DNA of 64,000 nt from Picochlorum sp. 'celeri' (lineage: Eukaryota; Chlorophyta; Trebouxiophyceae), in the NCBI GenBank assembly GCA_010909725.1, contig JAACMV010000024.1, positions 434,001 to 498,000 on the forward strand, read 5' to 3'. This document shows, in pieces, positions 11,465 through 57,985 of this stretch. Position numbers and translations under genes: made by a program. The notes below the pieces were generated by a model. It did not search any database. It was given only the letters and a program-made list of their open reading frames with translations, and had not been told where the DNA came from. Within the stretch, counting starts at the first letter, position 1. Every line of letters begins with the position of its first letter.

Positions 11465-13343
11465 TCAGCTCATAATTTTAACCAACACTGGGGCGATCAG
11501 TTGTCTATCCTGAGCCCAAGCCCACAATACAATCTTCTTTCCCATTAATGGCAATGAGCCACTGGCCACAAGACCTATTGATGGATATTTAGAATTCATG
11601 CCATGCGGACGCGCCGAAGTAACAATGCCCATGACATCCCACCTATGAATGTCTTCCTTCGCTGCGACTGTCAATTCGCCTCTTCTTATGAGGCTGCGTT
11701 GTGAATCAATTCTCATCTTCCCACAAGACGGCAGTATCTTAGGAGATTCAATAGAACATAAAATATCTCCTTGCCTGAGCGTTCCATTCTTGATAATCCA
11801 AATTTCAACTCGAGAAAGTCTCTCGGATCTAGAAAACAATGTCTGAGACTGTCTCATCAAATTTGATGGGAAATTCTCATTCTTGTCCAATCTCGCTGCA
11901 AAGGTCTCCACAATCTTGCCAAATTGGTGAGAATTAGAGTAATCATTCGGATAAAATGCAAGTTTATTTAGAGTGTGATACCAGTGCCATTCCCTTTGAC
12001 CTGCAATGAATGCCCCAGACAAGCAGATTGCTTTGAAGATTACCTGATATATATCCCTGTTCAGATAGATGGAGAACCCTGCACAAGGCAAGACATCAGA
12101 AAATGCCCCACTTGACACCAGAGATATACAATTTTGAAACACACCTGAGCTATTCCGAATGACAGCAATGGTGATACTGTCATCCGAACTAGCACACTTT
12201 CTCCCTTGAGGCTCGCTACAGACACAATATCCCACCAGTCCGGACACAATATCTGACAGGCCATTGGACAAGTCTGAGGCCGAATATATAACTTGTTTCT
12301 TTTTGATTCTATCATAAATTGACCAAATACAGTTGTCACCCAGTGACGGGTCATTGTGATTCTCAATTGTTAAAGGTGCTCCTCTGCTTCCCTCGTCCCC
12401 AAGCTTGCTGATGATCCTTTCAGACACAGGGCCCCTCACTTCAATCCTACCCAGCCTTCCCAGTTTCATGCTGATGTTGTCCGATTTCTCAACCTTTTCA
12501 CACACGTTCCGAATCACTGGGGCTGCATATTCGCAATGTGCCCAGATAATAACCCCGCTACTCTCACAAGCCACGATTTCAAGAGGCCCTGTGCAGCATG
12601 AGCCATTGCTCCCTGGCACATCGGCATATTGATGCGAACTACGTTCTTCGCCCACATATTCGGGACTCGTATAGTTAGATAGATCCGAAAGAATGGGCAG
12701 AATCTCCTTCATCGGCCCAAGTAATTCGATAGAGCACCAATAGGAAGCATCGTGGATTATACAGCCAGTCTCCAGTCTGTGCTTGAATGATCGAGTTCCT
12801 CTTCCGCGACCACACGTACCCTCAGGAACCACAAACTTCCAACTATATGAAACAAATGTGTGTTAGACATAGATCTAATGATGCAATTATCTGGTTAATG
12901 ACGTTACCTGTCAATTCTGGACATGGCCATTCTCTTCGCATGGAAGACATGTGTTGGGAGCCTGCAAACCTCACCAGGGCTCATTGCACCTTTCTCCCAA
13001 GGATTCGAACACTCATCAAAACTCTTTTTCCTTCTCATCCGCCGATTGAGAAACCTACCCGGGGAGTCCTTGTCTTTATGGACGTTGGGTCTCCTGCCAC
13101 CTCTCCGATACCGTTTATGACTCCTAGACCTCCTCCTCAAGCCTCTCGGCAAACCTCGTATTCCATACTCATCTTGACTCGAACCCTTAACCTGATCGTG
13201 AATCGATAGTATCTGCATCGAAAGAAGATCTGATACCTTCAGTAAAGAGGACCAGAGAGACCAGTCGAGTAAAAGGAGCAGCGACGTACCTCCCGAATTC
13301 TGGCCTCAGCCAGTTTATTTACATCAACAGCTCGAGTAGACAT
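11465..13343 (-). CDS. POP1: Ribonuclease P/MRP protein subunit POP1
   Basis: Largest protein of RNase P and RNase MRP, needed for 5' tRNA maturation and rRNA processing. Three exons (13290-13343, 12908-13212, 11465-12842) join in phase to about 578 residues. Exon 1 encodes MSTRAVDVNKLAEARIRE. Exon 2 carries the POP1 N-terminal block: GLPRGLRRRSRSHKRYRRGG, RFLNRRMRRKK, and THVFHAKRMAMSRID. Exon 3 opens with WKFVVPEGTCGRGRGTRSF and CIIHDASYW, matching the conserved glycine/arginine-rich RNA-binding stretch. The POPLD-type region is around IAGQREWHWYHTLNKLAFYP, and the C-terminus has GIVTSARPHGMNSKYPSIG. The protein is shorter than yeast and human POP1 (about 850-1000 residues). The frame is intact. 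Confidence 0.92.
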
Positions 13344-13534
13344 GTAACAAAATAGCCTACGTCAGATCATTCCATTGATAAAATGCATCCATACTTTCGG
13401 GTACAGCAGGAGAGCTGCATGCTTTCGATATTTGTTCACTCGTGGGCACGCTACAGTCCTTTTGACATTGCTCACAACACCGGTAATCTTTTCTGAAACA
13501 TTTAATTGTTTTTATTGGTTCATTGATGAAAGTA

Positions 13535-13918
13535 TCATAGTATGCCTGTAGATCCGAATTTCAAGGTGGCGCCCTCGAGGTCCACTTCAAACAGAACATT
13601 GGTTGATTGAAGTTCAACTTTAAACCTGGGATCCAACAAATCCCCGAAATAATGCTTTCATATGCCATAATATTGTACAGATATGATGAAATGCGGCTAA
13701 AACGTACCTGGAATGATGGCTGGGAGTTTGTATGTGTGATCCAACACCTTTTTGCTACGAAGTATGGTTTGGAAGAGTAGGTCGAAGAACGAGCCATTGC
13801 CTGGTGTTTTAAGCAGTCACCAACCTTGTAGCATCTGATCACTCAAAATGTATAGAATCAGCTCTCTGGAAGTTATAATCACTCTGGAAACTGTATTCTG
13901 ATTAGCCTTTCCTCCCAT
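13535..13918 (-). CDS. Probable small gene, product unknown
   Basis: An ATG at 13918 opens MGGKANQNTVSRVIITSREL followed by ILYILSDQMLQ. Further reverse-strand coding-like segments are FFDLLFQTILRSKKVLDH with YKLPAIIPG, and a last segment DPRFKVELQSTNVLFEVDLE that stops near 13535. The middle and last segments are separated by a normal-sized GT-AG intron candidate. The first and middle are separated by only about 24 bases containing a stop, more likely an indel than a real intron. The residues look coding but I know no matching family. Confidence 0.35.
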
Positions 13919-14187
13919 TTTGCAGGCTCAGCTCTAGACTTGGCCAGCTCTCAAGGGAAGGAATGGGGCTAGAGGGGATAGCTTTGCTTTCCTGCATCCA
14001 CTTGTTTACTGGTATAGATTCGCGGTAGCATATTGGCAATTTCAGTCTAGGGGCTGTATATTGATAATGTCTCCCGCCTTGCGGCCATCATGGCATGTTT
14101 GGAAGCCCAAATCTCGGCTGGTCAACGTTCTGGTTGACCCTGTCAAATTTATTTGCATACCAGGCGTATCCACAATTTTAATAGATA

Positions 14188-17100
14188 ATGAACGATAACA
14201 GAGTTGATCGAGATCCAACAAGAGAGTTGGACCGTGCAAGCGGTGCAAAGTTGGTGTTTCTTCAGTTTCGAACTCTTGTGAGAAAAGAATGGCTCGTGAG
14301 GTGAGTATTGCATCTTTGGAAGCTGTATATCGAACAGAAATAAATTACAACCACCTTGATACAGGAAAAGGAAAACGAGGCTCAACTTCTTGCTTCTTGT
14401 AAGCTCGACCCTCTGTGTTGGAATGATTTGGGTCTTCAATGCTGCGATGGATTTATACCAGCAAATGGATTCCAACCGAAGGGTCGTCAAGTACTCTGAG
14501 ATGATATCAATGACGTCTGCCATTCCAAGCTGCAAGGACAATATCTTCATGAGGCAGGACATTCCATGTTTTAGCCTTCTGTATGCTCCGGTGTGTGGCT
14601 TGAATGCTGCCAGCCTTGCTTGACTCTATGTTTCGAGTTTGTTCTACTTAACACGTTGAAAATGCAGGAAAACAAGGAAACAAGAGAGATCGTCAACAAT
14701 ATTCGTGAGGATAATGTGCCGAGCATTGATGCATCACTTGTCAAAGGCTTTTCCTCTGGAAAAGAGATGGATAAGTATTTGTACACTCATCCAAATTCAG
14801 TGGTATCGGCTGTAGAATTCTTCAAGGAAAGCGATAAAAATTATGCATTTTCGGTTCAGACGAATGGAACAGTCCGCTGGTTCAAGGGAGTTTTTCAGCA
14901 ACCCCATCTGTATGCTCAACTTCCAGTTGTTGTTGCTGTTCAGAAAGCCCTAGCATCCATGATTGCTGGAACGCCTATAGAATGGACAGTTCGCATTGGA
15001 GAATATCCCCATCCAGCTATATCAGTACGTTGACGGGATTTAACCTCAGCATGCTCCGCTTTTTTTGTGCATGAGAGTTGGTATTGTACATGCAGGCTCA
15101 AATGTTCACAAGCAAATTTGCCCCGCTATTTTTTGTGTCGAGCATTCTCTTGGTACTGATACTACAAATCTACGAGATTGTGGAGCAGAAAGAAAGGGGA
15201 ACCATCGGGCTATTGACATTAACTGGCTTGCAGTACGCTAATTTTCTTGTTTTTTCTGTAGGGACCACAATGGTTGACCGACAAATCCACTGAATGTTGC
15301 AGGTTCACTCCGTACTGGAGTTCCCTTGTTGCCACATACTCTACTCTGCATCTCGCGAATGCATCACTTCTTTCCCTTTTGTCGGTAGCAATGCAGCTCC
15401 AACCTGTGAGTTCTCTTGTCTCGTTTTTTGTCCGTTTCTTGTTGGACCTCGGAATCACTGACATTGTATACTGTTCTCTTTTGCAGTTTCACGGAGTCAA
15501 AATACTTTATTGCTTCCTCCTTTTGGCTAATTCTTCTCAGGCAATAATGGCATTAGGCCTACTGTCCTCCTCCCTTTTGAGAAAGGTGTGTATTTGTTGT
15601 GTACATGTTCTCGTTGATGATTAGATATCTTGCTTGGCTATTTACCAAAGTACCTCACCAATTTCTTGCAGACTTCCTCAGCTATATCTACAGGCTTTTT
15701 ACTTTTTTCTTTGGCTTGGATAATGATGGTATTTCTTAGTTTTGGATTCCCTTTTTCCCTGGAAGGTGAAGGAGTCTGGAAAACACTGTTCTGCATGTTT
15801 CCTTGGACGATCACATTTAGAGGATACGAGCTACTCTCCGACTCCAACATAGCGTTAGAGACATCTAACTTTCCCATTCTAATGGCCTCGCTATCCGCTC
15901 AGAATGTGATATACACTGTCTTGGCAATTTACTTTGATGCTTGCCTGCCAGACATTAACGGCAAAAGACGGATACCCTGGTTCTTGTTCAGATTGAAACA
16001 GTTGCACTCAAAGGTACGATACACATTCTAACCGGTTAGTCGGAAGATAATCAATCTGACTCGTTTCCATGATCATTGATAGGGATATGTTAGCAAAAGC
16101 CTACTCTCCGCGACGAATCAGAAGTCCAATCGATGCTCGGATGATGCAATCGATCTCGAGGAGAGAGAAATTAAAGAGCTTTGTCGGAAGTATATTACTG
16201 AATCAATCGAGGATCCTGAATACGCAATCCAAATACATGGGTTGCGGAAAGAATATAATATGCCAGGATGGCTCAACAGAAGTAGCAGGATTGCGTTAGA
16301 TGGTGACTGGTTCGGTGTCAAAGCAGGTAAGATAGCGCAGTAGGTTGACAACAAGTTGAGCGCGACGCGTGTCACAAATAGGTGTGCATTCGACATGTGC
16401 TGATCCCAATATGACGATCGCCATCTTTGCAGGAGAATGCTTTTGTCTTCTTGGGCCCAATAGTGCTGGCAAAACTACTTTGATCAAGTGTTTACTTGGA
16501 CTAACTAAGGCTTCCAGTGGTACGGCTGCTTCGCCTTGATTGCGAGAGTACTGGTTCCTTATTATCTTCGCTAAAATGATTTGTACAGGTCAAGCAATCA
16601 TCGACGGAAAGAGCACTTATACATCGAGCGATCTTCAGGAAGCATCGAAAAACATAGGCTATTGTCCCCAGCATGATGGATCTCTTTGCGATCTTCTGAC
16701 AGTTTGGGAGAATTATGAATTGTTCTGCGCAGCGAAAGGAGTTGTTCCGAGCTTGGCGGAAAAACAGAATGTTCCGATAATCACGGTGCGAGCTAACAAT
16801 GAGTTTTCCTTAATTTCCAACGAATGAATACACCATGCCACCGCCGTAACTTGCGCAGGGACAACCGAATGCCACACTGCTCAATGCGTCTCCCTCCGAA
16901 CGAAGGCAGCTTTCCATCGCAATCGCACTGATAGGAAATCCAAAGGTAAGTGGAGCAATCTACAAGAGTTTGGTCTTAATGCACTAATATCAATTATGCC
17001 ACGTATATTCCAGGTGATAGTACTAGACGAGCCAACTGCAAATGTCGATCCTTTCGTGAAAAGGACAGTGTGGAAACACATTGAAGAATTGAAAAATGAA

Positions 17101-18048
17101 AGATCGACTGTGTTTCTCTCGACCCATAGTATGCATGAAGCTGAAATTCTCTCCGACAGGTGAGTCACAAGATCGATGTCGATGGATAGTAGAGATCGCA
17201 ATGACGATTTTATAACTCAATTCGCAGAATCGGAATTATGGTGCGAGGGAAGTTGCGATGCTTGGGATCTCCTCTGGAACTCAAACGGAGGTTTGGATCC
17301 GGATATAAAATCAGCCTGGGACTTCAAAAAGATGTTGACCTCGACCAAAAGACTATACAAGAAAATATTGTTCAGCTTATGCGGAAAAGCATGACTCTGA
17401 AATCAGGTATGATGATCGCAGTGCTCCAAAGGGTTGATTATTGATTGATAATGACATCTAGTTGCAGTTGAATTCTCAGCTGATTATGTGAATATTACCT
17501 TACCATACGAAATGGAAGATAGGTTGCCACTGATGCTGACGCAGCTCAATGTACGTGCACTTGAAGACTGTGTGTCCTATATTTATACCTAAGGAGCAAG
17601 CTTGTTTTTGACGCAGAATAACATGGAGTTGCTTCATATTCGAGACGTGCAGCTGCGCCCAACTCCGATGGAGGAAGTTTTCATGACCATAACAAAAAAA
17701 GCGGAACTTGAAAATGCTGAGGTGCGTGTGCTCATGTATCGTGTTTGTATCTTTGAGAGTAATCTGATTTCACTGTTGCTCCACAGGCCGAGGGTAGATT
17801 TGAGACATTGCTATTAGCTGAGGAGGGTATTGCTCTCAAAATACCAGTGGGCGCAGATTACATCGAGAGTCCAGGTGAGAATTCGTTTGCAATAATCAAA
17901 TCGGATGTTACAACTATCGATCTTGCTTTATACTGTTACAGGTGGAAATTTTTATACAATCAAATGGACAAAAGATCGCTTAGGTCACCTAAGAATTCAC
18001 GATTATTCTCCTGACAAATTCCGCATTCGCGAGGAGAAAGATCGATAA
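14188..18048 (+). CDS. Half-size ABCA-type ABC transporter with an intact Walker A/B but degenerate signature motif
   Basis: Seventeen exons can be followed in phase (14188-14300, 14365-14590, 14668-15024, 15096-15232, 15303-15405, 15487-15585, 15672-16013, 16083-16326, 16433-16519, 16589-16785, 16859-16945, 17014-17159, 17228-17406, 17468-17550, 17617-17721, 17787-17874, 17942-18048), totalling 899 residues. The order is ABCA-like: N-terminal [20 protein letters not shown] before TM1, an extracellular loop, [20 protein letters not shown] and several TMs, then one ATPase domain. Walker A is GPNSAGKTT (about 548-556), the Q-loop IGYCPQHDG, Walker B VIVLDEP (about 665), and the H-loop [11 protein letters not shown]. 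The expected LSGGM signature is replaced by ASPSE (about 645-649), both glycines lost, and the preceding helical segment is short. The half-size protein must dimerise. See the second ABCA gene at 23596-26748, whose defects are complementary. Confidence 0.93.
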
Positions 18049-18117
18049 ATTTTCTTAGACTGATCTTCGATGATTGCAGCCTTTACTCTGCATGAATAAA
18101 TAAAATTTTAGATGCTG

Positions 18118-20415
18118 TCAACTATCGCACCAATCCTTTTGTATATGATGTAATTCGTACCTGTAATCATCGACGTGTCGTTTCCAGTTTTCCATGTTTA
18201 TCTTTTCAGGCAGGTTCGCATTATAGGCTGACTTTACTTCGTTTTCGCACATCGGTTTCGGATGCTCTTTACCCATCTACACAAAAAAGAATCGAACTCC
18301 ATCACAATTCGTCTCCATGCTTATGAAACTGCCACTCAAAATTCGTACCTGCTTCATTAAGTGAGGGCTACTCCATGAGAGATAGCAGAGGGATATTTGT
18401 AGCAAAGAATACGAAGAGCTTTGAGGTGACGACTGGCATATTACTGGTGGATGCTTTAGTGTGAAATCCATGCCGGTCTTCTTGGAATCTTTGTCTGCTG
18501 GCATTGGTGTTTCATCTAAGCTCTCGGAGCAACTGAATTTTTTCAGCTTGCTCGTGATGAACTCAAAGTCTTCCATGCTTTCGTCGAATTGAAAGTAGAC
18601 GTCCTCGAGATACTTGATATACTTGTCTAGATCTCGTACGTTCAACTGAATAACCTGCAAGTGAAATTAGAAAGAGTGGTTTGTTTAGTCTACTCTGTGG
18701 CCGTTGTTCCAATAGTTTAAAAGATGGTATCAATTGACATACGTCACGGGAGCGAACACGGTGAGGCATCAGCCTATCACTGTGCAGAAGATTTTCAAAT
18801 GATGATTGTATGAGTGAATCCCATGCTGACCGATCTTCCACACAACTAAGTATGACATCAACTGCAGCAAATGTATATTAAATTATTTACCTTGCCATAT
18901 GCGTGAGCAACCAGAAAATATCAATTCCTAGTTTTCATGTAGCTTTTGTCTTTGTTCATACTAGAGGACATATCAACATACAAAACCATGGCTCACCGTA
19001 AAAGGCAGTTTTTGTGGCCTGCATAGCCCAAGGAGTCTTGAATAGGTCACACAAGTAGAGCTCCGAGGAGTTTATATCTCCACCGTAGAGAAATTGACAC
19101 GTTGAGAGCGGTGCGAGTATTTCCTGCATTAAATATCATAGCCATGATGACTGACAAACATTATTCACGGTAGGGTGAAAGAAACAAACCTCTGGCAGGC
19201 CAAGGGTTACTGCATATCGCTGGTTCCAGGCCATGGTGTGAAGCGGAGGAACTTTATAACGAAGAAAAGATCCTAAACGTCGGGATTGTGCATATATCTT
19301 TGCAGGACTGATGACCCCTGCATCACAATTGTCAGAATGTTTGTCTGCCATACATCTACATTCACGGACAATAATGAATAAAACATACCCGGTCGACAGA
19401 AAAAGATCTTGGGAAACATTGTCAAATATTGTTCTAAAGAGGATTTGAATATTTTCCAAAATCCTAAGTATTCAATCCTGCCTGTCGATGACAATGTGCA
19501 AATATCCATGGGGTCTAATGTCTCTCGCATCATCCAGCATCCTAGAAACAAAATGGTCAGGGAAAGCGAAAGAGGCAAGAACTGCAACAAGACGCCACGG
19601 TGAGACCAAATTTTGAAAGCGTGTCCAGAAACAACATACTTTGTTCAAGTGCATGGTGACAATAGCACTTGCTCGGCTTGTCTTCCTACCCTGATCATCT
19701 TCAAGCATCTTCTCCTCGCTCGCAGCAATATCTCTCTCTATGACCCTGCAAGCGTACAATGTTCGTCATGATATCAACATAGGAAAAGTAGGTTCTCTCT
19801 CATGAGGATGACATACTCGTAAAACGACGATTCTAAAACCCCCGATTTCTGGATATATAGGAACCAAATTTCTCGAACACGTTCACGGAACACATCACAA
19901 CGGGAAATAAGATCCAGCCTCTCCAGCTGGGAAATCTGAATCTGCACGAGTGAAATCCATACGTCAAACAATACTTGAAGACCTGTTCCAGCGCCGGTAG
20001 GAATTACAAACCTGAAGTAAATCTTGGAAGGCAAAGATGTATGCTTCAATTCCTTCCTGAATGGGAAGCTTTTCCTTCTCTTCTACGCGCTTCCATTCAG
20101 TCTTGTATTCACTTGGAGCCGCACGAACTTCAGTACGCCTACATAAAATCTCATCTCGCATGAGCCCGAAACTTAAATGAATGGAATCACAGCTGTTTGC
20201 ACACACAACTCACCTGGTTGCAGCTTGGTACTCCTGTGTTTCCTCCAAAAAGTTCTGCAAAGTCAACGTTGTAAAGCCGATTGAGACAAATATAAACTTT
20301 TAATATGAAAACCTACTTGTTGAGTAACCCCGCATGTTTCGCAGACTAAAATCCCAGCTGTCAGTTGCAGAGTCCCTGCAAAGCATGTTTGACACAAACC
20401 CCCTTCTTCTTCCAT
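18118..20415 (-). CDS. TAF1B/Rrn7-like RNA polymerase I initiation factor (TFIIB-like)
   Basis: The ATG at 20415 opens MEEEGGLCQTCFAG, and the first exon (to about 20317) forms a zinc ribbon with two CxxC pairs: C7/C10 in LCQTCF and C27/C30 in LVCETCGV. This is the Rrn7/TAF1B-type ribbon. At least seven more exons follow on the reverse strand, including EYKTEWKRVEEKEKLPIQEG, CDVFRERVREIWFLYIQKSG, ASAIVTMHLNKVC, MAWNQRYAVTLGLPE, VIQLNVRDLDKYIKYLEDVY and a last exon after an acceptor near 18276 ending KRHVDDYRYELHHIQKDWCD at a TGA at 18118. The helical middle fits the cyclin-like folds that bind TBP and rDNA promoters, but similarity there is weak, and the ribbon carries most of the call. Its end lies 69 bp from the ABCA stop (convergent). 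Confidence 0.6.
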
Positions 20416-20691
20416 TGCAGAGGGCAATCAGTACCCCAACAAATGACGAATTCAGTTAATTTATTTTAACACGAAAAAAGATGCAGTCAGTCCCGACTCT
20501 CCTCTCTCGACAAGCCGAAACACACGTCAGTGCTCTCTGCAAATCTGAGCCTGAATTGTCAAACACGGAAGGATGACCTCCGTGAAGGTCACGGGCACAA
20601 TGTAAGAAAATTATACCATAGATCGATATATTGTTGTGATACGTATTTATTTCAATAGCAGAGCACCTGCTATTTGAACAAACTGTTCGAG

Positions 20692-21785
20692 ATGTCTTTG
20701 TCCACATGTGTAATCGGAGGAAGCAAAAACACTGCGTTTGCTGGTAGTGTGCGAGGTAAGTAGCCTAACATGGTATTAAAATGTATATATTGGGTAACAA
20801 TGGAGTTTCTGGGACCCTACGCAGCATTTACTCAGCGAAGAAGGTTGTATCAGAAGAGTACCAGGCCTGCTGTCAAAGTTCAGGCCAACTTGTTTGAGCG
20901 AATCGTCAGAGTTGCTAAATCGTATGCAAATGCCTTTGGTATGTTGAATGAGTGTATCTCTCCCTTGGCTAGATGAACTGGTGTGATGGTCTGTTTCTGT
21001 GTGTCTGCAGTGAGTTCTGTGGAGGATCCAGAAAAAGTATTGGATCAGGCAGTCGAGGATATGCAGAACGATCTGATTAGGCTGAGACAGGCCGCTGCGG
21101 AAGTCACGGCGTCGGAGAAGAGAATGCAGGCGAAGAGGGATCAGGCGCAGAGCACAGCAGTGCGTACTATCATTGCCATGGAGCCCATCCTTGTGCTGAT
21201 CAAATGACTCACGCTGTTATTTGTTTACTCTTGCAGAATGAATGGTATCGCAGAGCTGAACTCGCGCTCAGCAAAAATGATGAGGAACTTGCACGCGAGG
21301 CGCTGTCCAGGCGCAAGGCTTTCCAGGAAAATGCTGACATGTTGGGTTCGCAGTTAGACCAGCAAGCCAAGGCTGTTGAAACTATCGTCTCCAACATGAG
21401 GACACTGGAAGCAAAGTTGGCGGAAGCAAAAATGAAAAAGGATACTCTAAAGGCGAGGGCTCAATCAGCCAAGTCAGCCAGAGCAATCAATGACATGGTA
21501 GGAGGGCTGAGCACTGGCAGTGCCCTTTCAGCTTTTGAAAAGATGGAAGAAAAAGTCATGTCACTGGAGGCCGAGGCCGACGCTGCGACACTTTTGGTTG
21601 GTGGTGCAGATGATCTTGAATCGAAATTCAAGCAGCTGGAAGGTGGAGATGTAGACGACGATTTGGCTGCCATGAAGGCCAAACTCGGCACCACAACCGT
21701 CGCTGGCCAACTGCCCCCCGGCAGACCCGTCAAAGATGCGATTGACGTCGAGCTCGAGAATATGAAGAAAAATATGGGAGATTAA
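20692..21785 (+). CDS. VIPP1: VIPP1/IM30, PspA-family thylakoid membrane protein
   Basis: ESCRT-III-like protein that assembles into rings and rods and maintains thylakoid and inner-envelope membranes. Four exons (20692-20755, 20825-20938, 21011-21159, 21237-21785) join in phase to 291 residues. Residues 1-40 are a Ser/Arg-rich plastid transit peptide. The mature part starts ANLFERIVRVAKSYANAF, the membrane-binding amphipathic helix of VIPP1, followed by SSVEDPEKVLDQAVEDMQND and long coiled-coil helices including ELALSKNDEELAREALSRRK. The C-terminal KAKLG segment and short tail (DVELENMKKNMGD) correspond to the VIPP1-specific extension. The frame is intact. Confidence 0.95.
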
Positions 21786-21825
21786 TTAATTGTAGTATTG
21801 AGGTGTAAACGAATATTTTACCAAA

Positions 21826-22675
21826 CTATTCTACAATACCATCAATGATCCCCAACCCAACAGCCTCCTTTGGACTCAAAAAGTTTTCTCTATCACACTC
21901 TTCTTCGATCCTGTCTGTGGATAACCCTGTCGAATTAGATAAGAACTGGTACATCATCTTCATGGTGCGATTCAGCTCGGTCGTCTGAATATTAACCTCA
22001 TCCGCTGACCCCTGAGCACCCCCATTCGGTTGCTGCAACATTATCCTGGCATTGGGCATGCTAAATCTTCTGCCCTTTGTCCCTGCAGCTAATATCTGAA
22101 CGGCATTTCCTCCCACCATACCGAATGCGACGGTGCTAATTGGTGCCTTGACAGCTTCCATGGTATCCAAAATTGACACCACCGAGTAGGAGGACCCTGC
22201 CGCACAATTGATGTACAACTTAATTTCATCCTCTGTGCTTAATGAATTTAGTGCTAATAAGCTAGCTACTGTCTTAACTGCCACCTGATCGTTGATTCGC
22301 TCACCTAGAAAGATAATTCGATTGCGGAGCAAGTGGCTATTCAGATCTACAACATCCTCGTTGTTCTCACCCATCTGTATTACTGGAGCAATAATTGGAT
22401 CACGCTCTCGACGAGCCATACATACCAATCTGCACGCAACGTTGGAACGGTGATTCAGTACATGAGCGAAAACACAAGCACTCCTGCTATTCTCAAGATT
22501 TCCTTTCATCCACGCACCCTGCACCGCTCTCATACAAAGATGAACTTTCATACGAACTCAGAGGTCTTGATTGAACACCACGCTGGTCCACTGTATGGTG
22601 GAAGAACCTCCTCTCCCGAGGACAGGACTGGGTAGTCCTGCAAAGACTCGTTCCAAGTCGAGCAATGTGAGTCAT
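21826..22675 (-). CDS. ClpR-type (catalytically inactive) subunit of the organellar Clp protease
   Basis: ClpP fold without its active site. Recognisable blocks are LLRNRIIFLGERINDQVA, IKLYINCAAGSSYSVVSILD, AGTKGRRFSMPNARIMLQQP and a C-terminal KEAVGLGIIDGIVE. In active ClpP the Ser sits in GxAASMG and the His in IHQP. Here the equivalents are GMVGGNA (Gly for Ser) and LQQP (Gln for His), so Ser and His are both missing, as in plant and cyanobacterial ClpR. Such subunits sit in the heptamer rings with active ClpP and shape the chamber. The 5' end is unsettled: an ATG at 22675 begins a basic leader (MTHIARLGTSLCRTTQ) that could be a transit peptide spliced in, or translation could start nearer 22430 at MARRERDP. 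The stop is 40 bp from the VIPP1 stop (convergent). Confidence 0.85.
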
Positions 22676-22724
22676 GAGTAACTATAAAGAGTTTATAATG
22701 CATCTATACCGAGAGATGGTGTGT

Positions 22725-22748
22725 GGTGGATTTCCATGGGAATCCACC
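22725..22748. repeat. Near-perfect 24-bp palindrome in a divergent intergenic region
   Basis: The arms GGTGGATT and AATCCACC flank a CCATGG-centred core. The whole 24 bp is self-complementary apart from the centre-flanking bases. It lies between the divergent ClpR and plastid L22 genes, so it could be a shared dimeric-factor site; this is inference from position only. The next 40 bp also contain a short GC-rich inverted repeat around GGCCTTTGGCCAATGGCC. Confidence 0.6.
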
Positions 22749-22896
22749 GTGCCTCATCCATGGCCTTTGGCCAATGGCCGCCGATGGCTTCCATCCGACA
22801 TTGTCGAAACCACTCACATTGCCCACATACACATCGAATATAGCATTCTCTATATAATTATAGCACATTCCGATTTTAACACGTAGATCGGCAGTC

Positions 22897-23585
22897 ATGA
22901 TGAACGTGCGTCCTTCCAGCGTTGCCATGGCCACAAGCACAGCAGGTCTTCCTGTTTCTGTGCCAAGGGTGGCACATTTTGGATCATGTTCTGTAATTCG
23001 TAGAGTACGTTATTTGTTTTAGTTTTTAGCGGTATTGAATGGATGGTTTTTGGCTGAAATGAGGTGAATGGGGTTGTGTGGTAGTGTCGCCTGGCAGTGT
23101 GGTGGCCATGTTTGCCGGCATTGCTATCGGAATGCTTTCTCATTTTTTTAATTCTTTTGATGCAGCAAGCTGGCGTGGTGCCTGTTGAGCGTCCAGCGAC
23201 CCGCACGCTGGCCGCCCCGGTGTGTGTTGCCGCTGCTGCGACAGAGGCTCCAGAGGCAGTGGCCTATCTCAGATTTGCAAGAGGTTCTGCTCTCAAAGTG
23301 CGTAGAGTTTTGGACCAGATTCGCGGAAGATCATATGAAGAAGCTTTGATGATTCTGGAGTACATGCCATACAAAGCCTGTGAGCCAGTGATTCAGACAC
23401 TTCTCTCAGCTGCAGCAAATGCCAAGAACAACCTTGGAATGAAGAAGAAAGATTTGTTCGTAAGCGAGTGTTTTGCTGATGAAGGTCCAGTGATGAAGAG
23501 GTACAGACCTCGTGCGCAGGGAAGAGCAAACAGGATTTTAAAGCCAACAGTGCACATTACAATCAAGGTAGCAGAAAGATCATAA
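22897..23585 (+). CDS. PRPL22: Plastid ribosomal protein L22 (uL22c), nuclear-encoded
   Basis: Large-subunit protein lining the exit tunnel of the plastid ribosome. Two exons (22897-23004 and 23166-23585) join in phase to about 175 residues. The first ~60 residues are a Ser/Val/Ala-rich transit peptide. The mature protein carries the uL22 fold: [40 protein letters not shown], then [20 protein letters not shown] and the basic loop [20 protein letters not shown] followed by HITIKV. In red algae and glaucophytes this gene stays in the plastid genome, so a nuclear copy supports a green-lineage host. The first of two adjacent ATGs is used. Confidence 0.95.
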
Positions 23586-23595
23586 TGTAACATAG

Positions 23596-26500
23596 CTATT
23601 CAATGTCTTCCAGTAGATTGAGGTACACATCTTCTAAACTCAAATTCGAGACACTCCAATCTGCAATATCTACTTTTGGCCCAAGTTTCATCTTTTCCAT
23701 TCTCCTGAAGACAGCATCGATTGTTTGGTTGGCTGTGAGAGGCAGAGCAAATTTGAGCGTTTTGCCAAACTCGCTGACCAGGTCAGCATCCTCAAATGTG
23801 GATCTGACACACTTGATGATTTCTTTTCTACTTCCAGTTGTGTTGAAAGTGATAGTCAGCCACATGAATCTTCCATACCTAGAAATCATCTTTTGTGGAG
23901 ACCCAAGAAATGCGATTTCCCCCTTTCTCAATACAGCAATGCGGTCGCACGGCTCTGCCTCCAGGATATTATTTGTCGAGATGACCACCGAAACGCTTTT
24001 TGTTGCTTCTTTCAGGGCTCTCCATAGTACTTTCCGTGAGTATGGATCCATTCCTGCTGATGGTTCATCAATAAATACAACTTTAGGGCCATTGGGATCC
24101 CCCAGACCCAGCAATGCAATTGCCAATGAGAGCCGTCTTCGCATACCCCCGCTGTATTGGGCGACTCTCGTTTCAATTGAAGAGTGCAAATCAAGAGACT
24201 CTATCATATTTTGTATGTACGCGTCCAGGTTCGCACGTCTTCCAAATTTTATCATACCAAAGATTTTCAAGTTTTGCCACCCTGTAAGCTCATGAAACAA
24301 AATGTCTGTATCCCAACATGCCCCAATAGGTATATTCAGAGGAAGCTTGTCTCTAGAGTCCCAACCGTGGACAAGAATCGTCCCTTGGTCCTGATGAACA
24401 AGGCCGACCGTCATTTTCAATATTGTGCTTTTGAATGAACCTGGCGCAGCACCTAGAAATGCAAAGCATTCCTGGTCTTGGATCACCAAGGAGAGATCGA
24501 TCTCTAACTGATCATATTCGGAAAACTTCTGCACCGCCTGATAGATGACCGAGAAATCGTAATGTTGGATTAAACTTGGATCACGCTGCAGCATTTGGAC
24601 CAGCCTTTTGCTATTTTCTCTTGTGTCATCTTCATCTTCGCGAGCAGCTGGTATTTCGAGACTAGTATCTGCGTATGATCCTAAGTATTCTGCTAGAGAA
24701 GATTTTTTCTTCGCTCTAGAAGTCCTTCCCTTTAACTCTGCTCCACTGAGATGGCCCAAATAATAATCTAACTCATCTTCAGAATTTTTTCCCTGAACAG
24801 CATGACTACTGGAGTTTGCTCCATCTACCCTGCTAGCTTCTTGCTTTGATTTCCTTTTAAGAAAAAACAAATAGCCCCGTCTTATGCCATCAACATTGCC
24901 CATGAGATAATCAGAGTAAAGTGCAAGGAGCGGTATCACCAGGCTCTGAATCAACATGGCAAGCAGAACAAGCATCATGCTATTATCGGTCGCCATGGTG
25001 TTCCATGAGATTCCTTTGTGGGCACCAGATTGATCTGCCAGAAAGGCATACTGAGATAGCTCATAAAGTCCTGCCAAACAACAATAAAGTGTCAAATTTG
25101 CATTGAACACCAGTTCATGCATCTGAGTCAAGCCAGATGATACACACCCATCTAAAAGCGCCAAAGCTTGGCACAAGAAATGAAGAATATTAGCGATATG
25201 TCATTTTCTTGTTCAAATTCAGCAGAACTAGGACGACATTTGCCAAAAACCCCATGATAAGATGTAGAACACTGATGATAATGCTCCTGACCTTCTATCC
25301 TTGAAGAAAGATGCATACAAAAACCCAAAACTGATGATCACGGTTCCCCACAGTCCAAAAAAATGCTATTTGAATTGATATTACTATTCTTAGTAAACAT
25401 CTTGACTCCAAGTCAAAAAGCCAAAAAACCAACAAAGCAAGACATGTAGATGCTATACATGCCCATATACCACACAAATTTGAAGCATAGAATGCAAACG
25501 GTCTCAGTCCATTGATATGCTGGAAAATCCTCAAATCTAGTTCCTTTTTCATATACTAAGAGTTGAGTGGAGTGGAAGTATCGCATGCATCAACCACATT
25601 GAAAACAAAGGACCCAACAAAGTTGAGAAGTCAACATTTAGGACCGAGGACTGCCTTGGCATGTCCCTGATCCCAGCCAGGTTCACAGATCCTATCGAAA
25701 AGTATTTGATATATGCATTCGATGCAATGTTAATAGATTGTGCCCAGCGTTGGATGTCTGGGATATCCATGGGACTATAGACTCTTGGGGGTTTAGCCCA
25801 AATGTCTACCTGCAGGTTTGAGGCATTTGTTAGGTGCCAATCATACGCACCGATAATCTTTGCACTTCTGTCTTCTCCCCAATCTTGGTAAATGGCATTG
25901 TTAATATCGTCAGACGAGTTGAAATATTTGAACAGAATGTTCAGCGTCGCGACATGCATGCCTGTCAGGTTGGCAACAGATTTCTGAATTGAGGACATTA
26001 CTTTGTCAGAATGGGCACCCGTGCTCCGACCATCTTGTAAGAGATACAGCTTCTTCTCCTCATTGATTTCAGGGATTAAAGCGCGTTCCAGTAGTAGAGT
26101 ACCCGAAGATATATCTGAAGTTGCCATGCTAACGCCAAAATCATGTAAACCCTTGACCAAAGCACCCGTAGCCTCGATAAATTCGAGTTCCTCAGCATTT
26201 TCATCCGCCTCTGTCCGACCACTCTCATGAAATCCATCCATGGATTCTATTTCATCCAGTACCATCGACTTGACGTATGATTCTGCGACTTTGGAGGCCA
26301 CCAACGCAGAGTTAGAAAAGAATGAATCCATGATTTTTGTTGTGTCCATTTCGTCCCCCCCTGTAAATGCAATATACCCAGTATCCAGGGTATCTGGCGG
26401 TATCTGCATTAAAGGGGGCCATAGCGGGGGCTGCTTGACGTCACAGAATGGTGCCTGATTGACAGAGGAATACAAAAAGCTACAGGTAGCATTATTCTGG

Positions 26501-26748
26501 CTTGAACAAGACCCAGATGGGGTACATGGCTCGACCCCTGTCGAATTGTAGCAATCCAAACATTTACAACCACATTTGAATGCATTGATATCAACGTGGT
26601 TAGATATCGAGTTCTGTGCGATGATCAGAATGGCCAAGGCAATGAAAGGCGCTGCCCCAAGAGCTAGTACTCCAAAAGGCCTCCGAAACTGTAACAGAGC
26701 ATCCTTGTATACGCATGCAGAGATCTGTGAGACTAATTCCCTTTTCAT
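23596..26748 (-). CDS. Half-size ABCA-type ABC transporter with degenerate Walker A and H-loop but intact signature; several frame breaks
   Basis: The ATG at 26748 opens MKRELVSQISACVYKDALLQ with a long first exon: TM1, a Cys-containing extracellular loop of about 330 residues, and the start of TM2. Near 25550 the frame breaks, then resumes as KKELDLRIFQHINGLRPFAF, the ABCA block after TM2. Further breaks occur at a T7 run near 25360, near 25245, and at an in-frame TAA near 25190. A GT-AG intron leads into GLYELSQYAFLADQ (about 25070). The ATPase domain is uninterrupted to the stop at 23596. The Walker A region reads FLGAAPGSFKST, one residue longer than consensus with Phe instead of the Gly before Lys. 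The signature is YSGGMRRRLS (intact) and Walker B VVFIDEP. The H-loop is VISTNN, with Asn for His. The stop faces the L22 stop, 10 bp apart. Breaks are probably sequence errors; a pseudogene is possible. Confidence 0.8.
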
Positions 26749-52767: not shown

Positions 52768-54681
52768 TTAGAGAATTCCAGTGCTGCCACAGCAACTTGG
52801 TGGTTCCATGAACCTCACATCAACCTCTGCTGCGGGGTCGACAGCTGCTGTAGCTCCTCCAGATGTAATAGAACCTGCCTTTTCACCAATATGGCCCATG
52901 AGAAGGGCACCTACCATGTATCCAAAGACAACAGCAACAATGATGCCAATGTTGAATGTCATGACAATGAGCATGAGCATGTAATCCAAAAATACAACAA
53001 TACCAGAGAATGCAGAGCGGACAATGTTCCTCTTGAATTGGGCCTTTGTAAACTTGCACCATCCAAACAACTCATCGAATGCTCTCACACCAAAGTTTTT
53101 GACACGTTGGCCAGTTGTTTCTGTCGTGTCTTTTGATGAGCTACCTCCACAACATCCCTCTCCACTGCTATTTCCTGCACCGATTGGGTCTCTTTCATCA
53201 TCGGATTTCTGATCTTCTAAGCGTCCACCGCATGCAATATTGCGGCAAGGCAAAATTGGGCGCTTGGAAGCCCACGTGAGCTCTTGCTGGATCCTGAAAG
53301 CTTTCAACCACTGAACCAAAACTGCTCCGAAGAAACAGGCAACGAGGGTTCCAAAGTAATATCCTCCATTTGTTGGTACCCATTCTTTAATCAAAACAAT
53401 GTCTCGAATACCAGTGTGGAGCCACATTCTCATTGGTGGCAAGCCCTGCTCCTCCCCAGTTCCGCAAAGCTGAGAGAAATCATCTCCTGTTGATGTGCAC
53501 ATGGCAAAGAATTTCGAGCATCCTGCCATATACGGCATTCCCAAGCATATTTCTGATAATGAATCCAATGGATGTGGGCAATTGCTGATGGATGTACATT
53601 TTTCACATCCAACCATGCCATGGTCAGAGCAAAGAGAGATGACAGTATTGGTAGCTTCCTCTGTGCTTGGGGCAGATGGAATTGGCTTTTCTGTTGAGCA
53701 CTGCGCCACAACAGATCCTGGTGAGAAGCAAAGACTGTTGTAATTGGAGCAGTCTCTCATGGAACTCATCTCCTCACAGATTGTTCCCAAAAGGCTGAAG
53801 GGCGAACACCAATCACCCTCTGCAGTCCCATTTGTGCATGCTGTTCTGAAGGAGCAACCAACCATATTTGGCATCGAAATGCACAAATTTTCCAAGTCTT
53901 CCTGCACAATTGATTCTGGCATGATGTAATCGGCACAAGAAGCCTGTGTTGGATCTGAAATGCAGGAGTCATTGGAACTGGCAGTGTTGGTATTCTCCAT
54001 ATCGCCCATGTCAGCAGCACTTGGTGAAGGCTTTCCAGTACAAAGGCTGCTAAATGCACTCTCCTCTGCTGTAACCTTACAGAAGTCAACCCAAATTTCG
54101 CAACCTGTCATCCACATTCCCAAGCAGACTGTCGAAATAGACTGCAATGGATTGGGGCACTGTTGCCTAATGACCAACTCTGTCGAATCTTTTGGTACAT
54201 CTTTGCATGTTTCACAGCCCACCATATCTGGCATCGCGTTACACATGTTGATGGTTGCCTGATAAATGGTGTCTACAGATGGAATCCCCTCAATCACAGA
54301 ACTCTCCTTGCAGGCTGGAACATTCGTGCCATCAGAACAAAGCCTCTGATATTTTGTGCATTCTTGATTGGAATCAATTTCACTGCACGTTGTTAAAAGT
54401 AAACTCAAGGGATCGCACATACTATCCGTCTGTGAGACTGTCTTGCAAGCAGCAGCCATAGAACAACCTGTTGGCCATCCTGATTGGGACACACCCAAGC
54501 TCTCCTCCTTGCATATGGCATCCAAACTTTGCGTGACTTGATCTTGAGACACTTCAAAGGTAGAACAAGCGTCACTCGATGGATCCGTGAAGCATTCTTC
54601 CTGAGCACGTCCAGACCCAACTAGCAAGAGCAAAACCGCAACAAAAATTAGACCTGTGCTCTTATCAGTATACATTTTCAT
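52768..54681 (-). CDS. CTR/COPT-type copper transporter with a large Cys-Met-rich ectodomain
   Basis: High-affinity Cu(I) importer of the plasma membrane; single exon, 637 residues. A signal peptide (MKMYTDKSTGLIFVAVLLLL) precedes an ectodomain of about 390 residues with an internal duplication of two module types. Module B carries the Cys-Met motif: ICLGMPYMAGC (C-x2-M-x2-M-x2-C), VCLGMWMTGC, LCISMPNMVGC and MCNAMPDMVGC. This matches the CX2MX2MXC-type motif reported for Chlamydomonas CTR proteins. The CTR core follows: PPMRMWLHTGIRDIVLI before the first helices, an acidic/Cys cytosolic loop, and the TM2-TM3 block DYMLMLIVMTFNIGIIVAVV with the MxxxM pore motif. GYMVGALLMG then provides the GxxxG packing motif. 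Family members are usually under 250 residues without such ectodomains. Confidence 0.9.
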   Translation of the reverse strand: MKMYTDKSTGLIFVAVLLLLVGSGRAQEECFTDPSSDACSTFEVSQDQVTQSLDAICKEESLGVSQSGWPTGCSMAAACKTVSQTDSMCDPLSLLLTTCSEIDSNQECTKYQRLCSDGTNVPACKESSVIEGIPSVDTIYQATINMCNAMPDMVGCETCKDVPKDSTELVIRQQCPNPLQSISTVCLGMWMTGCEIWVDFCKVTAEESAFSSLCTGKPSPSAADMGDMENTNTASSNDSCISDPTQASCADYIMPESIVQEDLENLCISMPNMVGCSFRTACTNGTAEGDWCSPFSLLGTICEEMSSMRDCSNYNSLCFSPGSVVAQCSTEKPIPSAPSTEEATNTVISLCSDHGMVGCEKCTSISNCPHPLDSLSEICLGMPYMAGCSKFFAMCTSTGDDFSQLCGTGEEQGLPPMRMWLHTGIRDIVLIKEWVPTNGGYYFGTLVACFFGAVLVQWLKAFRIQQELTWASKRPILPCRNIACGGRLEDQKSDDERDPIGAGNSSGEGCCGGSSSKDTTETTGQRVKNFGVRAFDELFGWCKFTKAQFKRNIVRSAFSGIVVFLDYMLMLIVMTFNIGIIVAVVFGYMVGALLMGHIGEKAGSITSGGATAAVDPAAEVDVRFMEPPSCCGSTGIL

Positions 54682-56002: not shown

Positions 56003-57985
56003 TCACTGGCCAAGATGAGCTTTGATTGCCTCTGTGGCAAGCTGGGCTTCAGTTTTTCCAGTCTTCTCTGCGGCAGATTTCAGCAAATCAGCAGCATCTG
56101 TAGATATTCCGATTTGTGGAAGATTTTTCATTTCACTTTGTGGAATATACGAGTCTTGCTGCTCCTTCAGGGCATCAAAGCCGACTCTGCCACAGAAATC
56201 ACCAAATGATTCACCCACACGCCTTTGTGACTTGAAGAGAGCGAAAATTGGTTCAAAGAATGACTCAAAATCGCTCAGCTTGACACGGTCTTGATAACGC
56301 TCTGCCAGACGTGCTCCACTAGGACTTCCCCCGAGCCAAATCTGATATGAGTTGGGCCCATCTCCAACAAATCCTAGTTCGGCATTATATGGTCTTGCAC
56401 AGCCATTTGGGCATCCAGTCATCCGAATGACAAATTTCTCATCTTTATCCATTCCAAGATTCTCCAAAACGTTACGAATGCGACTGATAACGTCTGGAAG
56501 GCCTCGCTCGGCTTCAGCAATTGCCAATCCACAGAGTGGCAATGCAGGGCATGCCATGGAACCAGCTTCCAAGGGGTCCCAGTCTTGGACGTCCTTTATA
56601 CCCGCAGCAGACAATGATGAAATGATATCATCCTTCCAAGCTGGGGATATATTTCGCAGAATGAGATTCTGATTAGCAGTGATGCTCACTGGAATTTCAT
56701 ATCTCTCAATCACAGCTCTGAGTGTCTTCTTTGCTTCACCCTTCAGTCGTCCATTCTGGACATAGATTCCATATGCCAACTTTCCATCTCCTTGGTCCAT
56801 CCAGCCTAAATAATCTTTAAATTCCCAAGCAGGCAGTGGTCGGAATGGCTCCATCTTCTTTCCATAGTACTGCTCCGTCACCTGGCGGAACTTGTCCACT
56901 CCCCAGTCGTGAATCAAATATTTCAGGCGGGCCTGCTTCCTGTCATCTCTGCGACCGTAATCACGCTGCACCGCGACAATCGCCTTGACAATATGGAAAA
57001 TATCATCAGCGGGCACAAACCCTAAAGGATCTGCCAATCTCGGGAAGGTCGTTGCCTTTCCATGAGAACGACCCATGCCTCCCCCAACAAGCACATTGAA
57101 TCCCTGCAACTTGCCTTCGGCATCAGTCATCACCACCAAGGCCAAATCATTTGTCAAAGCATCCACCGAGTTATCTCCAGGAACTGTCACAGCAACCTTG
57201 AACTTACGGGGCAGGAACAAATTGCCATAAATTGGCTCTGGAGAACCCTCAAAATTTGTTCCAAACCCATTGAATGCCCTATCAGCTGTCACTTTGGGAT
57301 CCTCCATCTCATGGGAAAAGAATTTCTCACCATCCAACCAAACATCGTAATACGCTCCACTCTGAGGTGCCAGCAGATCAGCAACGTCATTCGCATATTT
57401 TTGCGCCAATAGATACTCTGGCTTGTCCGAAAACACCTCTGGTGGAGCCATGACATTTCTGTTCACATCCCCACAAGCACCGAGGGTGCTTCCCATGGCC
57501 TTAATGACCGAAGAAAACACAGTCTTCAAATCCTGCTTCAAAACCCCGTGCAACTGGAATGTCTGGCGAGTTGTCAAGCGCAGCGTTCCATTGCCATACA
57601 AATCCGCCAACTCATCCATGACAAGGTACAACTGATTGGTCACGGAACCCGCAGGCTGCCTCGTTCGCATCATAAATTGATATGCCTTACCAGCCCCAAA
57701 TGTCCTCTTCTCTCTGTCATCCTGCTGATACGAACCGTGGAATTTCATGAGCTGCACCGCCTCTTCGCTAATACTTGTCTCCTCAGTCACCAGCTCTTGC
57801 ATAAGAGGGTGCCTCAGAAAGTCGGACTTCTCTTTTATTAATTCTACTTTGGATCGTTTAGGTCCCCTTGAGGATGGAGGGCGAGACGGTGTTGCAACAC
57901 ATACAATTTTACCGCCTGTAAAGCGACTATGCGCCGCAACAGAACGTGTACCCACATGCCTCTTCATTTTTATATGCGAATGCAT
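56003..57985 (-). CDS. SIR: Ferredoxin-dependent assimilatory sulfite reductase, plastid
   Basis: Reduces sulfite to sulfide with six electrons from ferredoxin, in plastid sulfur assimilation. Single exon, 660 residues, as in plants. The N-terminal ~50 residues ([20 protein letters not shown] start) are a basic transit peptide. Two ferrite-like repeats are visible: [40 protein letters not shown] with GDVNRNVM, and [20 protein letters not shown]. The siroheme/4Fe-4S ligands are in [20 protein letters not shown] and [20 protein letters not shown], the four-Cys pattern of the family. [12 protein letters not shown] is near the C-terminus. The frame is intact. Confidence 0.94.

What the first reader, a model, noticed from the sequence alone, without database searches (positions are those of the whole stretch)
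14188..26748. Two half-size ABCA transporters with complementary ATP-site defects: a candidate obligate heterodimer
The + strand gene (14188-18048) has intact Walker A (GPNSAGKTT), Walker B (VIVLDEP) and H-loop ([11 protein letters not shown]), but its signature is ASPSE instead of LSGG-x. The minus gene (23596-26748) has an intact signature (YSGGMRRRLS), but its Walker A is GAAPGSFKST (Phe for the Gly before Lys, plus one extra residue) and its H-loop His is Asn (VISTNN). In an ABC dimer, Walker A, Walker B and the H-loop of one ATPase domain face the signature of the other. Pairing these two gives one fully canonical site and one site in which both faces are degenerate, which is hard to explain unless they evolved as partners. 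Known ABCA proteins are mostly full-size or homodimer-forming half-size, so a split asymmetric ABCA pair linked in one locus looks new.
Basis: partly seen in the sequence, partly recalled or inferred. Interest (0 to 1): 0.75.

Follow-up and report, generated by a model that had tools for sequence, protein, structure and literature searches.

The report
Lopsided algal half-transporter pair
A tiny green alga carries two neighbouring genes for half-size lipid-type pumps that each lack the opposite half of an ATP-burning site, a pattern seen again in related proteins, so they most likely work as a pair with one live and one dead fuel site.

Summary
The genome matches the phased Picochlorum celeri assembly. 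Both genes and both motif defects are real. The + gene is a 17-exon, 899-aa half-size ABCA. The - gene is a 2-exon, 1023-aa half-size ABCA, intact in the other haplotype copy but frame-broken by an indel patch in the window copy. Motif stretches are identical in both copies and recur in Picochlorum BPE23, where the locus tags are five apart.

Orthologue clusters repeat the pattern (window included). The + type keeps Walker A Lys, Q-loop, Walker B and H-loop in 12 of 12 rows and an SGG signature in 0 of 12. The - type lacks the Walker A glycine, Q-loop Gln and H-loop His in 11 of 11 but keeps signature Ser, second Gly and D-loop Asp. A canonical, divergent sister pair exists. Trees place the canonical kin of the two types with opposite halves of full-size ABCAs.

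Best reading: an ABCA heterodimer with one canonical and one dead ATP site; pairing is inferred. If the half assignment holds, the dead site is the second; in full-length human ABC proteins it is the first.

The parts
14188..18048 (+). A2 gene: half-size ABCA (TMD-NBD), 899 aa, 17 exons (14188-14300, 14365-14590, 14668-15024, 15096-15232, 15303-15405, 15487-15585, 15672-16013, 16083-16326, 16433-16519, 16589-16785, 16859-16945, 17014-17159, 17228-17406, 17468-17550, 17617-17721, 17787-17874, 17942-18048)
   Evidence: spliced by hand on GT-AG introns, no internal stop; Pfam PF12698, PF00005, PF25158; 97% identical orthologue P0121 in Picochlorum BPE23
16453..16479 (+). A2 Walker [10 protein letters not shown]: GxxxxGK[ST] kept, but the middle Gly of GxxGxGK is Ser
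16657..16677 (+). A2 Q-loop GYCPQHD, intact
16883..16915 (+). A2 signature position [11 protein letters not shown], degenerate (canonical sister A1: YSGGMRRRLS)
17014..17052 (+). A2 Walker B VIVLDEP and D-loop ANVDP, intact
17116..17145 (+). A2 H-loop [10 protein letters not shown], intact
23596..26748 (-). B2 gene: half-size ABCA (TMD-NBD), 1023 aa in the C7 haplotype copy; exon 1 26748-25148, intron 25147-25071, exon 2 25070-23596; the window copy loses frame between about 25565 and 25149
   Evidence: orthologue P0001 in BPE23 98% identical over 86% of the length, its annotation starting about 140 residues in
25071..25147 (-). 77-bp GT-AG intron of B2
26551..26574 (-). Cys-rich start of the B-type outer domain (CGCKCLDC); the canonical paralogue B1 has a similar stretch (CGCLCLTC)
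24424..24453 (-). B2 Walker A GAAPGSFKST, degenerate: Phe for the Gly before Lys, one extra residue
24304..24321 (-). B2 Q-loop position ACWDTD, Gln replaced by Asp
24133..24156 (-). B2 signature YSGGMRRR, as in canonical relatives
24043..24081 (-). B2 Walker B VVFIDEP and D-loop SAGMDP, intact
23953..23985 (-). B2 H-loop VISTNNILEAE, His replaced by Asn

Best explanation
The two genes encode the two unlike subunits (A2 and B2) of one ABCA-type lipid transporter made of half-size proteins. A2 (+ strand) supplies Walker A, Q-loop, Walker B and H-loop; B2 (- strand) supplies the signature and D-loop. Facing each other in the head-to-tail NBD dimer, they form one canonical ATP site. The other site, made of B2's Walker A and A2's signature, cannot be canonical and probably binds ATP weakly, statically or not at all. 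Shown: both genes, both sets of defects, their recurrence in related protein clusters, close locus tags in a second Picochlorum genome, and a canonical sister pair A1/B1 in divergent orientation. Inferred: that A2 and B2 bind each other, that only one site hydrolyses ATP, and that the cargo is a lipid (by ABCA family membership only).
For: Motif counts (window rows included): site 1 residues (A2 ATP face, eight positions, plus B2 signature S, G, G and D-loop D) are canonical in 133 of 140 cells; site 2 residues in 54 of 136. These leave out the middle Gly of Walker A (with it 133 of 152 and 60 of 147) and the intermediate row P0007. Neither protein can make a canonical site with itself. A2 (6 rows) and B2 (9 rows, P0007 included) are each one clade in the quick tree (support 100). 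Linkage: 5.5 kb apart in the window; tags M9435_003179 and M9435_003184 in BPE23, which leaves room for the four genes I read between them here. In the whole-genome scans (candidates only, so lower bounds) the only other places where a PF12698 match precedes an NBD are A1 and B1, both canonical, divergent, 335 bp between the start codons. A2's best match among the other three is A1 (347-360 bits), B2's is B1 (349-370 bits). Canonical A-type halves side with N-terminal halves of full-size ABCAs and B-type with C-terminal halves (99/97 on the B plus C-half branch, careful tree; AU against A+B p=0.015, against A + C-halves p=0.008), so an A/B pair looks like the split equivalent of one full-size transporter.
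Against: No interaction, expression or ATPase data. Complementarity by itself has a prior of one half. The A = N-half, B = C-half idea was taken from the tree before it was tested, so the AU values are optimistic; partition trees agree on topology but do not reject the alternatives (NBD only 0.090 and 0.084; TMD only 0.067 and 0.127). Structure alignment does not separate the halves and leans against the assignment for A2: the nine best ABCA rows of the A2 model, and 11 of 20 listed, align to second halves; for B2 it is 6 of 11. B2 keeps the Walker B Glu in 11 of 11 rows, which a dead site would not need. In 7 of 11 B2 rows the first signature Gly is A, M or S, so site 1 is not perfect everywhere. 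Non-Picochlorum A2 proteins also lack a stretch between Walker A and Q-loop. For the unnamed clusters I cannot show that A2 and B2 come from the same organism.
Confidence: 0.67

Rival explanations
1. Each degenerate half pairs with a canonical half of the other locus (A2 with B1, A1 with B2), giving transporters with one canonical and one half-degenerate site, so A2 and B2 need not meet.
For: A1 and B1 exist in the same genome and have the right types. A2 with B1 also gives one full canonical site by motif.
Against: Closeness of A2 and B2 in the window and of their tags in BPE23. Under cross-pairing it is less clear why B2 would lose Walker A, Q-loop and H-loop together while the partner A1 keeps an intact signature.
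Confidence: 0.16
2. A2 and B2 form a complex, but it no longer pumps: it is an ATP-gated regulator, channel or scaffold, like the sulphonylurea receptors or CFTR among ABCC proteins.
For: Five B2 rows have lost Walker A Lys and the Walker B Asp as well (P0008, P0009, P0023, P0027, P0028); A2 rows outside Picochlorum lack a piece between Walker A and Q-loop.
Against: A2 keeps the catalytic Glu and H-loop His in 12 of 12 rows, which pure ATP binding would not demand.
Confidence: 0.1
3. Both genes are redundant paralogues drifting under relaxed constraint, and the complementarity is chance.
For: Long branches leading to A2 and B2 in the tree; B2 is frame-broken in the window copy.
Against: Intact frames over 899 and 1023 codons, near-identical orthologues in BPE23, and A2's eight ATP-face residues kept in 96 of 96 cells although P0121 and P0206 share only 39% identity.
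Confidence: 0.07

Closest known systems
Plant ABCA2-type half-size transporters (Pfam PF25158, ABCA11_C)
   Same: Most of A2's listed land-plant hits that bear a family name are called ABCA2; same C-terminal domain, TMD-NBD order
   Different: The land-plant rows checked are canonical (3 of 3); A2 has lost the signature
Plant ABCA7-type half-size transporters (rest of the ATH group)
   Same: B2's listed land-plant hits that bear a family name are called ABCA7
   Different: The land-plant rows checked are canonical (2 of 2); B2 has lost Walker A glycine, Q-loop Gln and H-loop His
ABCG5/ABCG8
   Same: Two unlike half-transporters, one degenerate site with signature and Walker A changes (PMC7756269). 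Their divergent shared promoter region is recalled, and would match the A1/B1 pair
   Different: Different family with NBD-TMD order; A2/B2 are about 5.5 kb apart and convergent
ABCB2/B3 (TAP), TM287/288, TmrAB
   Same: Heterodimers with one consensus and one degenerate composite site (PMC7756269, passages)
   Different: Type I exporters of other families
Human full-size ABCA transporters with a degenerate site
   Same: ABCA family; a subset has a degenerate site
   Different: In full-length human ABC proteins the degenerate site is always NBS1 and the changed signature lies in NBD2; here, by the two-halves tree, it is NBS2 and the changed signature lies in the N-terminal-type half

Membership tests
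ABCA subfamily, half-size | One TMD followed by one NBD | tested here: met
   A2: PF12698 at 213-431 then PF00005 at 536-673. B2: PF12698 over cut-off in the C7 copy and PF00005. The isolated window fragment 25552-26748 gave no Pfam hit.
ABCA subfamily, half-size | Phylogenetic place among ABCA proteins | tested here: met
   A2 inside the ABCA2-like group, B2 inside the ABCA7-like group; best sequence relatives of known structure are ABCA1, A3, A4, A7
ABCA subfamily, half-size | ABCA fold | tested here: met
Heterodimeric ABC transporter with one degenerate site | Two different half-transporter genes whose defects complement | tested here: met
Heterodimeric ABC transporter with one degenerate site | Defects conserved in orthologues of both genes | tested here: met
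   12 A2 rows and 11 B2 rows; near-copies and the window are among them, so not independent
Heterodimeric ABC transporter with one degenerate site | Physical association of the two proteins | not testable with these tools
   No complex prediction or interaction data on hand
Heterodimeric ABC transporter with one degenerate site | ATP hydrolysis at one site only | not testable with these tools
   Biochemistry needed
ABCG5/ABCG8 (ABCG family) | NBD before TMD | tested here: not met
   TMD before NBD; the resemblance is in mechanism only

The most novel reading that the evidence does not exclude
Half-size ABCA transporters of green algae and plants are generally A/B heterodimers, the unfused counterparts of the two halves of full-size ABCAs. 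A1/B1 (plant ABCA2 with ABCA7 type) is the ordinary pair. [quoted passage not shown]
Probability: 0.36. Interest if true: 0.75.

Novelty: new variant of a known kind. Interest (0 to 1): 0.54.

Why it matters
How half-size plant and algal ABCAs assemble is not settled in anything I saw (search listings; open-licence library only). A pair in which neither subunit can build a canonical site alone makes the question testable in an alga for which Cas9 editing is reported (PMC10808502, PMC12301381; search listing only). It also offers an ABC transporter whose dead site may be on the other side from the human pattern, which would test whether that pattern reflects mechanism or history. Half-size ABCAs are linked to triacylglycerol accumulation in Arabidopsis and Chlamydomonas (PMC9605142, passages), so partner identity matters for oil engineering.

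Tried and rejected
Sequencing error or mis-splicing as the source of the motifs: rejected. Both haplotype copies are identical there, BPE23 has the same motifs, and no frame of the unspliced DNA encodes a canonical replacement.

Pfam on the N-terminal fragment of the window's B2 gene gave nothing; the C7 copy does match PF12698. Fold comparison as an independent test of which half each protein resembles did not discriminate and leans against the assignment for A2; it re-ranks Foldseek's 1000 best chains only. Literature searches for a half-size ABCA heterodimer or a dead second site: I saw none in the listings (rows shown of papers found: 15 of 35; 47 7 of 7; 48 15 of 79; 51 12 of 18,275; 61 10 of 19; 62 4 of 4; 65 5 of 5; 79 8 of 32); I looked into passages of a few of these papers, not all. 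The Tetrahymena survey PMC2984421 (passages) already suggested that full-size ABCAs arose by fusing two unlike halves, with C-terminal NBDs nearer to half-size NBDs, so the two-halves idea is not wholly new. PMC4886425, PMC11092101 and PMC5355449, passages only, added nothing decisive. Co-occurrence in single organisms beyond Picochlorum could not be tested: metagenome contig scans are capped at zero by the tool's description (not called), and protein hits carry no contig names. dN/dS was not computed, for lack of coding DNA from a second species.

Rows left out: P0007 (H-loop Ser, Walker A one residue short, Q-loop and signature intact) is in the table but not in the B2 tallies; P0241 (99% like P0206) and P0002, P0247, P0248 (no NBD seen) are not in the table. 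Group membership of P0207, P0211, P0243-P0246, P0023, P0027 and P0028 rests on similarity, not on the tree. The 6 canonical A-type and 6 canonical B-type rows were chosen by me.
Full report
What the place is. The window is C24:434001-498000 of a 27.41-Mb genome in 30 contigs. Size, contig number and paired contigs match the published phased diploid Picochlorum celeri assembly, 27.43 Mb in two sets of 15 scaffolds (PMC7225527, part 1 of 2 read); the identification is my inference. That assembly was polished with PacBio reads only. The two genes each appear twice, on C24 and C7.

The two genes. The + gene splices into 17 exons and 899 residues. The - gene is broken in the window by a patch of short indels and substitutions, 25082-25792, but the C7 copy reads through 1023 residues with one 77-bp intron. 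The + gene shows the reverse: window intact, C7 copy with many indels from 12600 to 16164. Between the copies gaps outnumber mismatches (17 openings against 4, and 36 against 8), which fits long-read error. The motif stretches are identical in both copies.

Conservation. Three protein searches (the best 120 rows shown of 187, 194 and 4596, each from about 8,000 scored candidates) found orthologues in Picochlorum BPE23 (A2 97%, B2 98%, locus tags 003179 and 003184) and unnamed clusters. In one search, 12 A2 rows and 11 B2 rows, the window included, were scored at 14 motif positions, with 6 A-type and 6 B-type rows, all canonical, as yardstick. A2: Walker A first Gly, Gly before Lys, Lys, Ser/Thr, Q, Walker B D and E, and H-loop His kept in 12 of 12; the middle Walker A Gly is Ser in 12 of 12; SGG in 0 of 12 (S 2, first G 0, second G 10); D-loop Asp 2 of 12. 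B2: Gly before Lys 0 of 11, Gln 0, His 0, Walker A Lys 6, Walker B Asp 6 and Glu 11; signature Ser 11, first Gly 4, second Gly 11; D-loop Asp 11 of 11. Near-copies are among the rows, so the cells are not independent.

Steps of decay. In the quick tree, P0010 (canonical) is sister to B2; within B2, P0007 (named Picsp_1; Walker A one residue short, H-loop Ser) branches first; the Picochlorum B2 and a group of P0003-P0006, P0008 and P0009 are then sisters. P0003-P0006 keep Walker A Lys with Tyr before it; P0008 and P0009 have lost Walker A Lys and the Walker B Asp. In the ATP dimer Walker A, Walker B, Q- and H-loops of one NBD meet the signature and D-loop of the other (established ABC knowledge), so B2's losses fall mainly in one composite site, and its signature Ser, second Gly and D-loop Asp, which serve the other site, stay.

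The sister pair. Whole-genome scans (first-look candidates only, so lower bounds) show one other place with PF12698 ahead of an NBD: A1 (C10:913852-917028, -, 1010 aa) and B1 (C10:917364-920593, +, 1050 aa), divergent, 335 bp between start codons, both canonical, with a second copy on C16. By position the other PF12698 matches lie after an NBD match, as in ABCG proteins, or have none nearby in the lists. A2 matches A1 best and B2 matches B1 best. The window pair is therefore a second, degenerate A/B pair, not two random relatives. In Arabidopsis AtABCA2 is At3g47730 and AtABCA7 is At3g47780 (table in PMC4304824, passage); such close locus numbers suggest that the two types are neighbours there too.

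Two halves. Splitting nine full-size ABCAs into N- and C-terminal halves and adding canonical A- and B-type halves gives an unrooted tree with A and N-halves on one side and B and C-halves on the other (careful tree, 99/97). AU tests on the same alignment reject A+B (p 0.015) and A + C-halves (p 0.008), with the caution that the idea came from the smaller tree. With ten other full-size ABCAs, NBD columns alone give the same split (97) but do not reject the alternatives (0.090, 0.084); TMD columns alone, 11 full-size ABCAs from both sets, likewise (91; 0.067, 0.127). So an A/B pair looks like an unfused full-size ABCA. [quoted passage not shown]

Consequence. If A2 stands for the N-terminal half and B2 for the C-terminal half, the live site is NBS1 and the dead one NBS2. 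A review states that in full-length human ABC proteins the degenerate site is always NBS1 and that the NBD2 signature is changed in every degenerate human site (PMC7756269, section 7 read); it also notes that heterodimers can be aligned with full-length proteins in two ways. The algal pair would be the mirror image. This rests on the half assignment above, which fold comparison does not support.

Verdict. Real, conserved in the clusters seen, and best read as an asymmetric ABCA heterodimer; pairing itself is unproven. The kind of machine is known; the family and the side of the dead site are new as far as my searches reach.

Noticed in passing
window 25082-25792 against C7 copy (L006); window 12600-16164 against C7 copy (L008): Clusters of short indels between haplotype copies that are otherwise nearly identical here, each copy broken in a different gene. 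Looks like unpolished PacBio error; gene models from this assembly need checking against the other phase.
   Followed up: yes
L069 (C10:912400-921400): Canonical half-size ABCA pair A1/B1 in divergent orientation, 335 bp between start codons.
   Followed up: yes
window 18050-23595: Four genes lie between A2 and B2 by my reading: an unidentified intron-bearing one (-, about 18.3-20.6 kb), one that looks like Vipp1/PspA (+, about 21.0-21.8 kb, named from recall), a Clp protease (-, 21829-22557, PF00574) and one that looks like ribosomal protein L22 (+, 23085-23582, named from recall).
   Followed up: partly
P0007 (Picsp_1 NSC_01037): A B-type protein in a half-way state: Walker A one residue short, H-loop Ser, Q-loop and signature intact.
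   Followed up: partly
P0159, P0206, P0207, P0211, P0214, P0242-P0246: A2-type proteins outside Picochlorum lack a stretch between Walker A and the Q-loop, and most carry an acidic insert before the signature; their live site may be altered as well.
   Followed up: partly
window 56006-57985, 52771-54681, 60290-61585: Unrelated genes: nitrite/sulphite reductase, Ctr copper transporter, TRM13 methyltransferase (Pfam).
   Followed up: no
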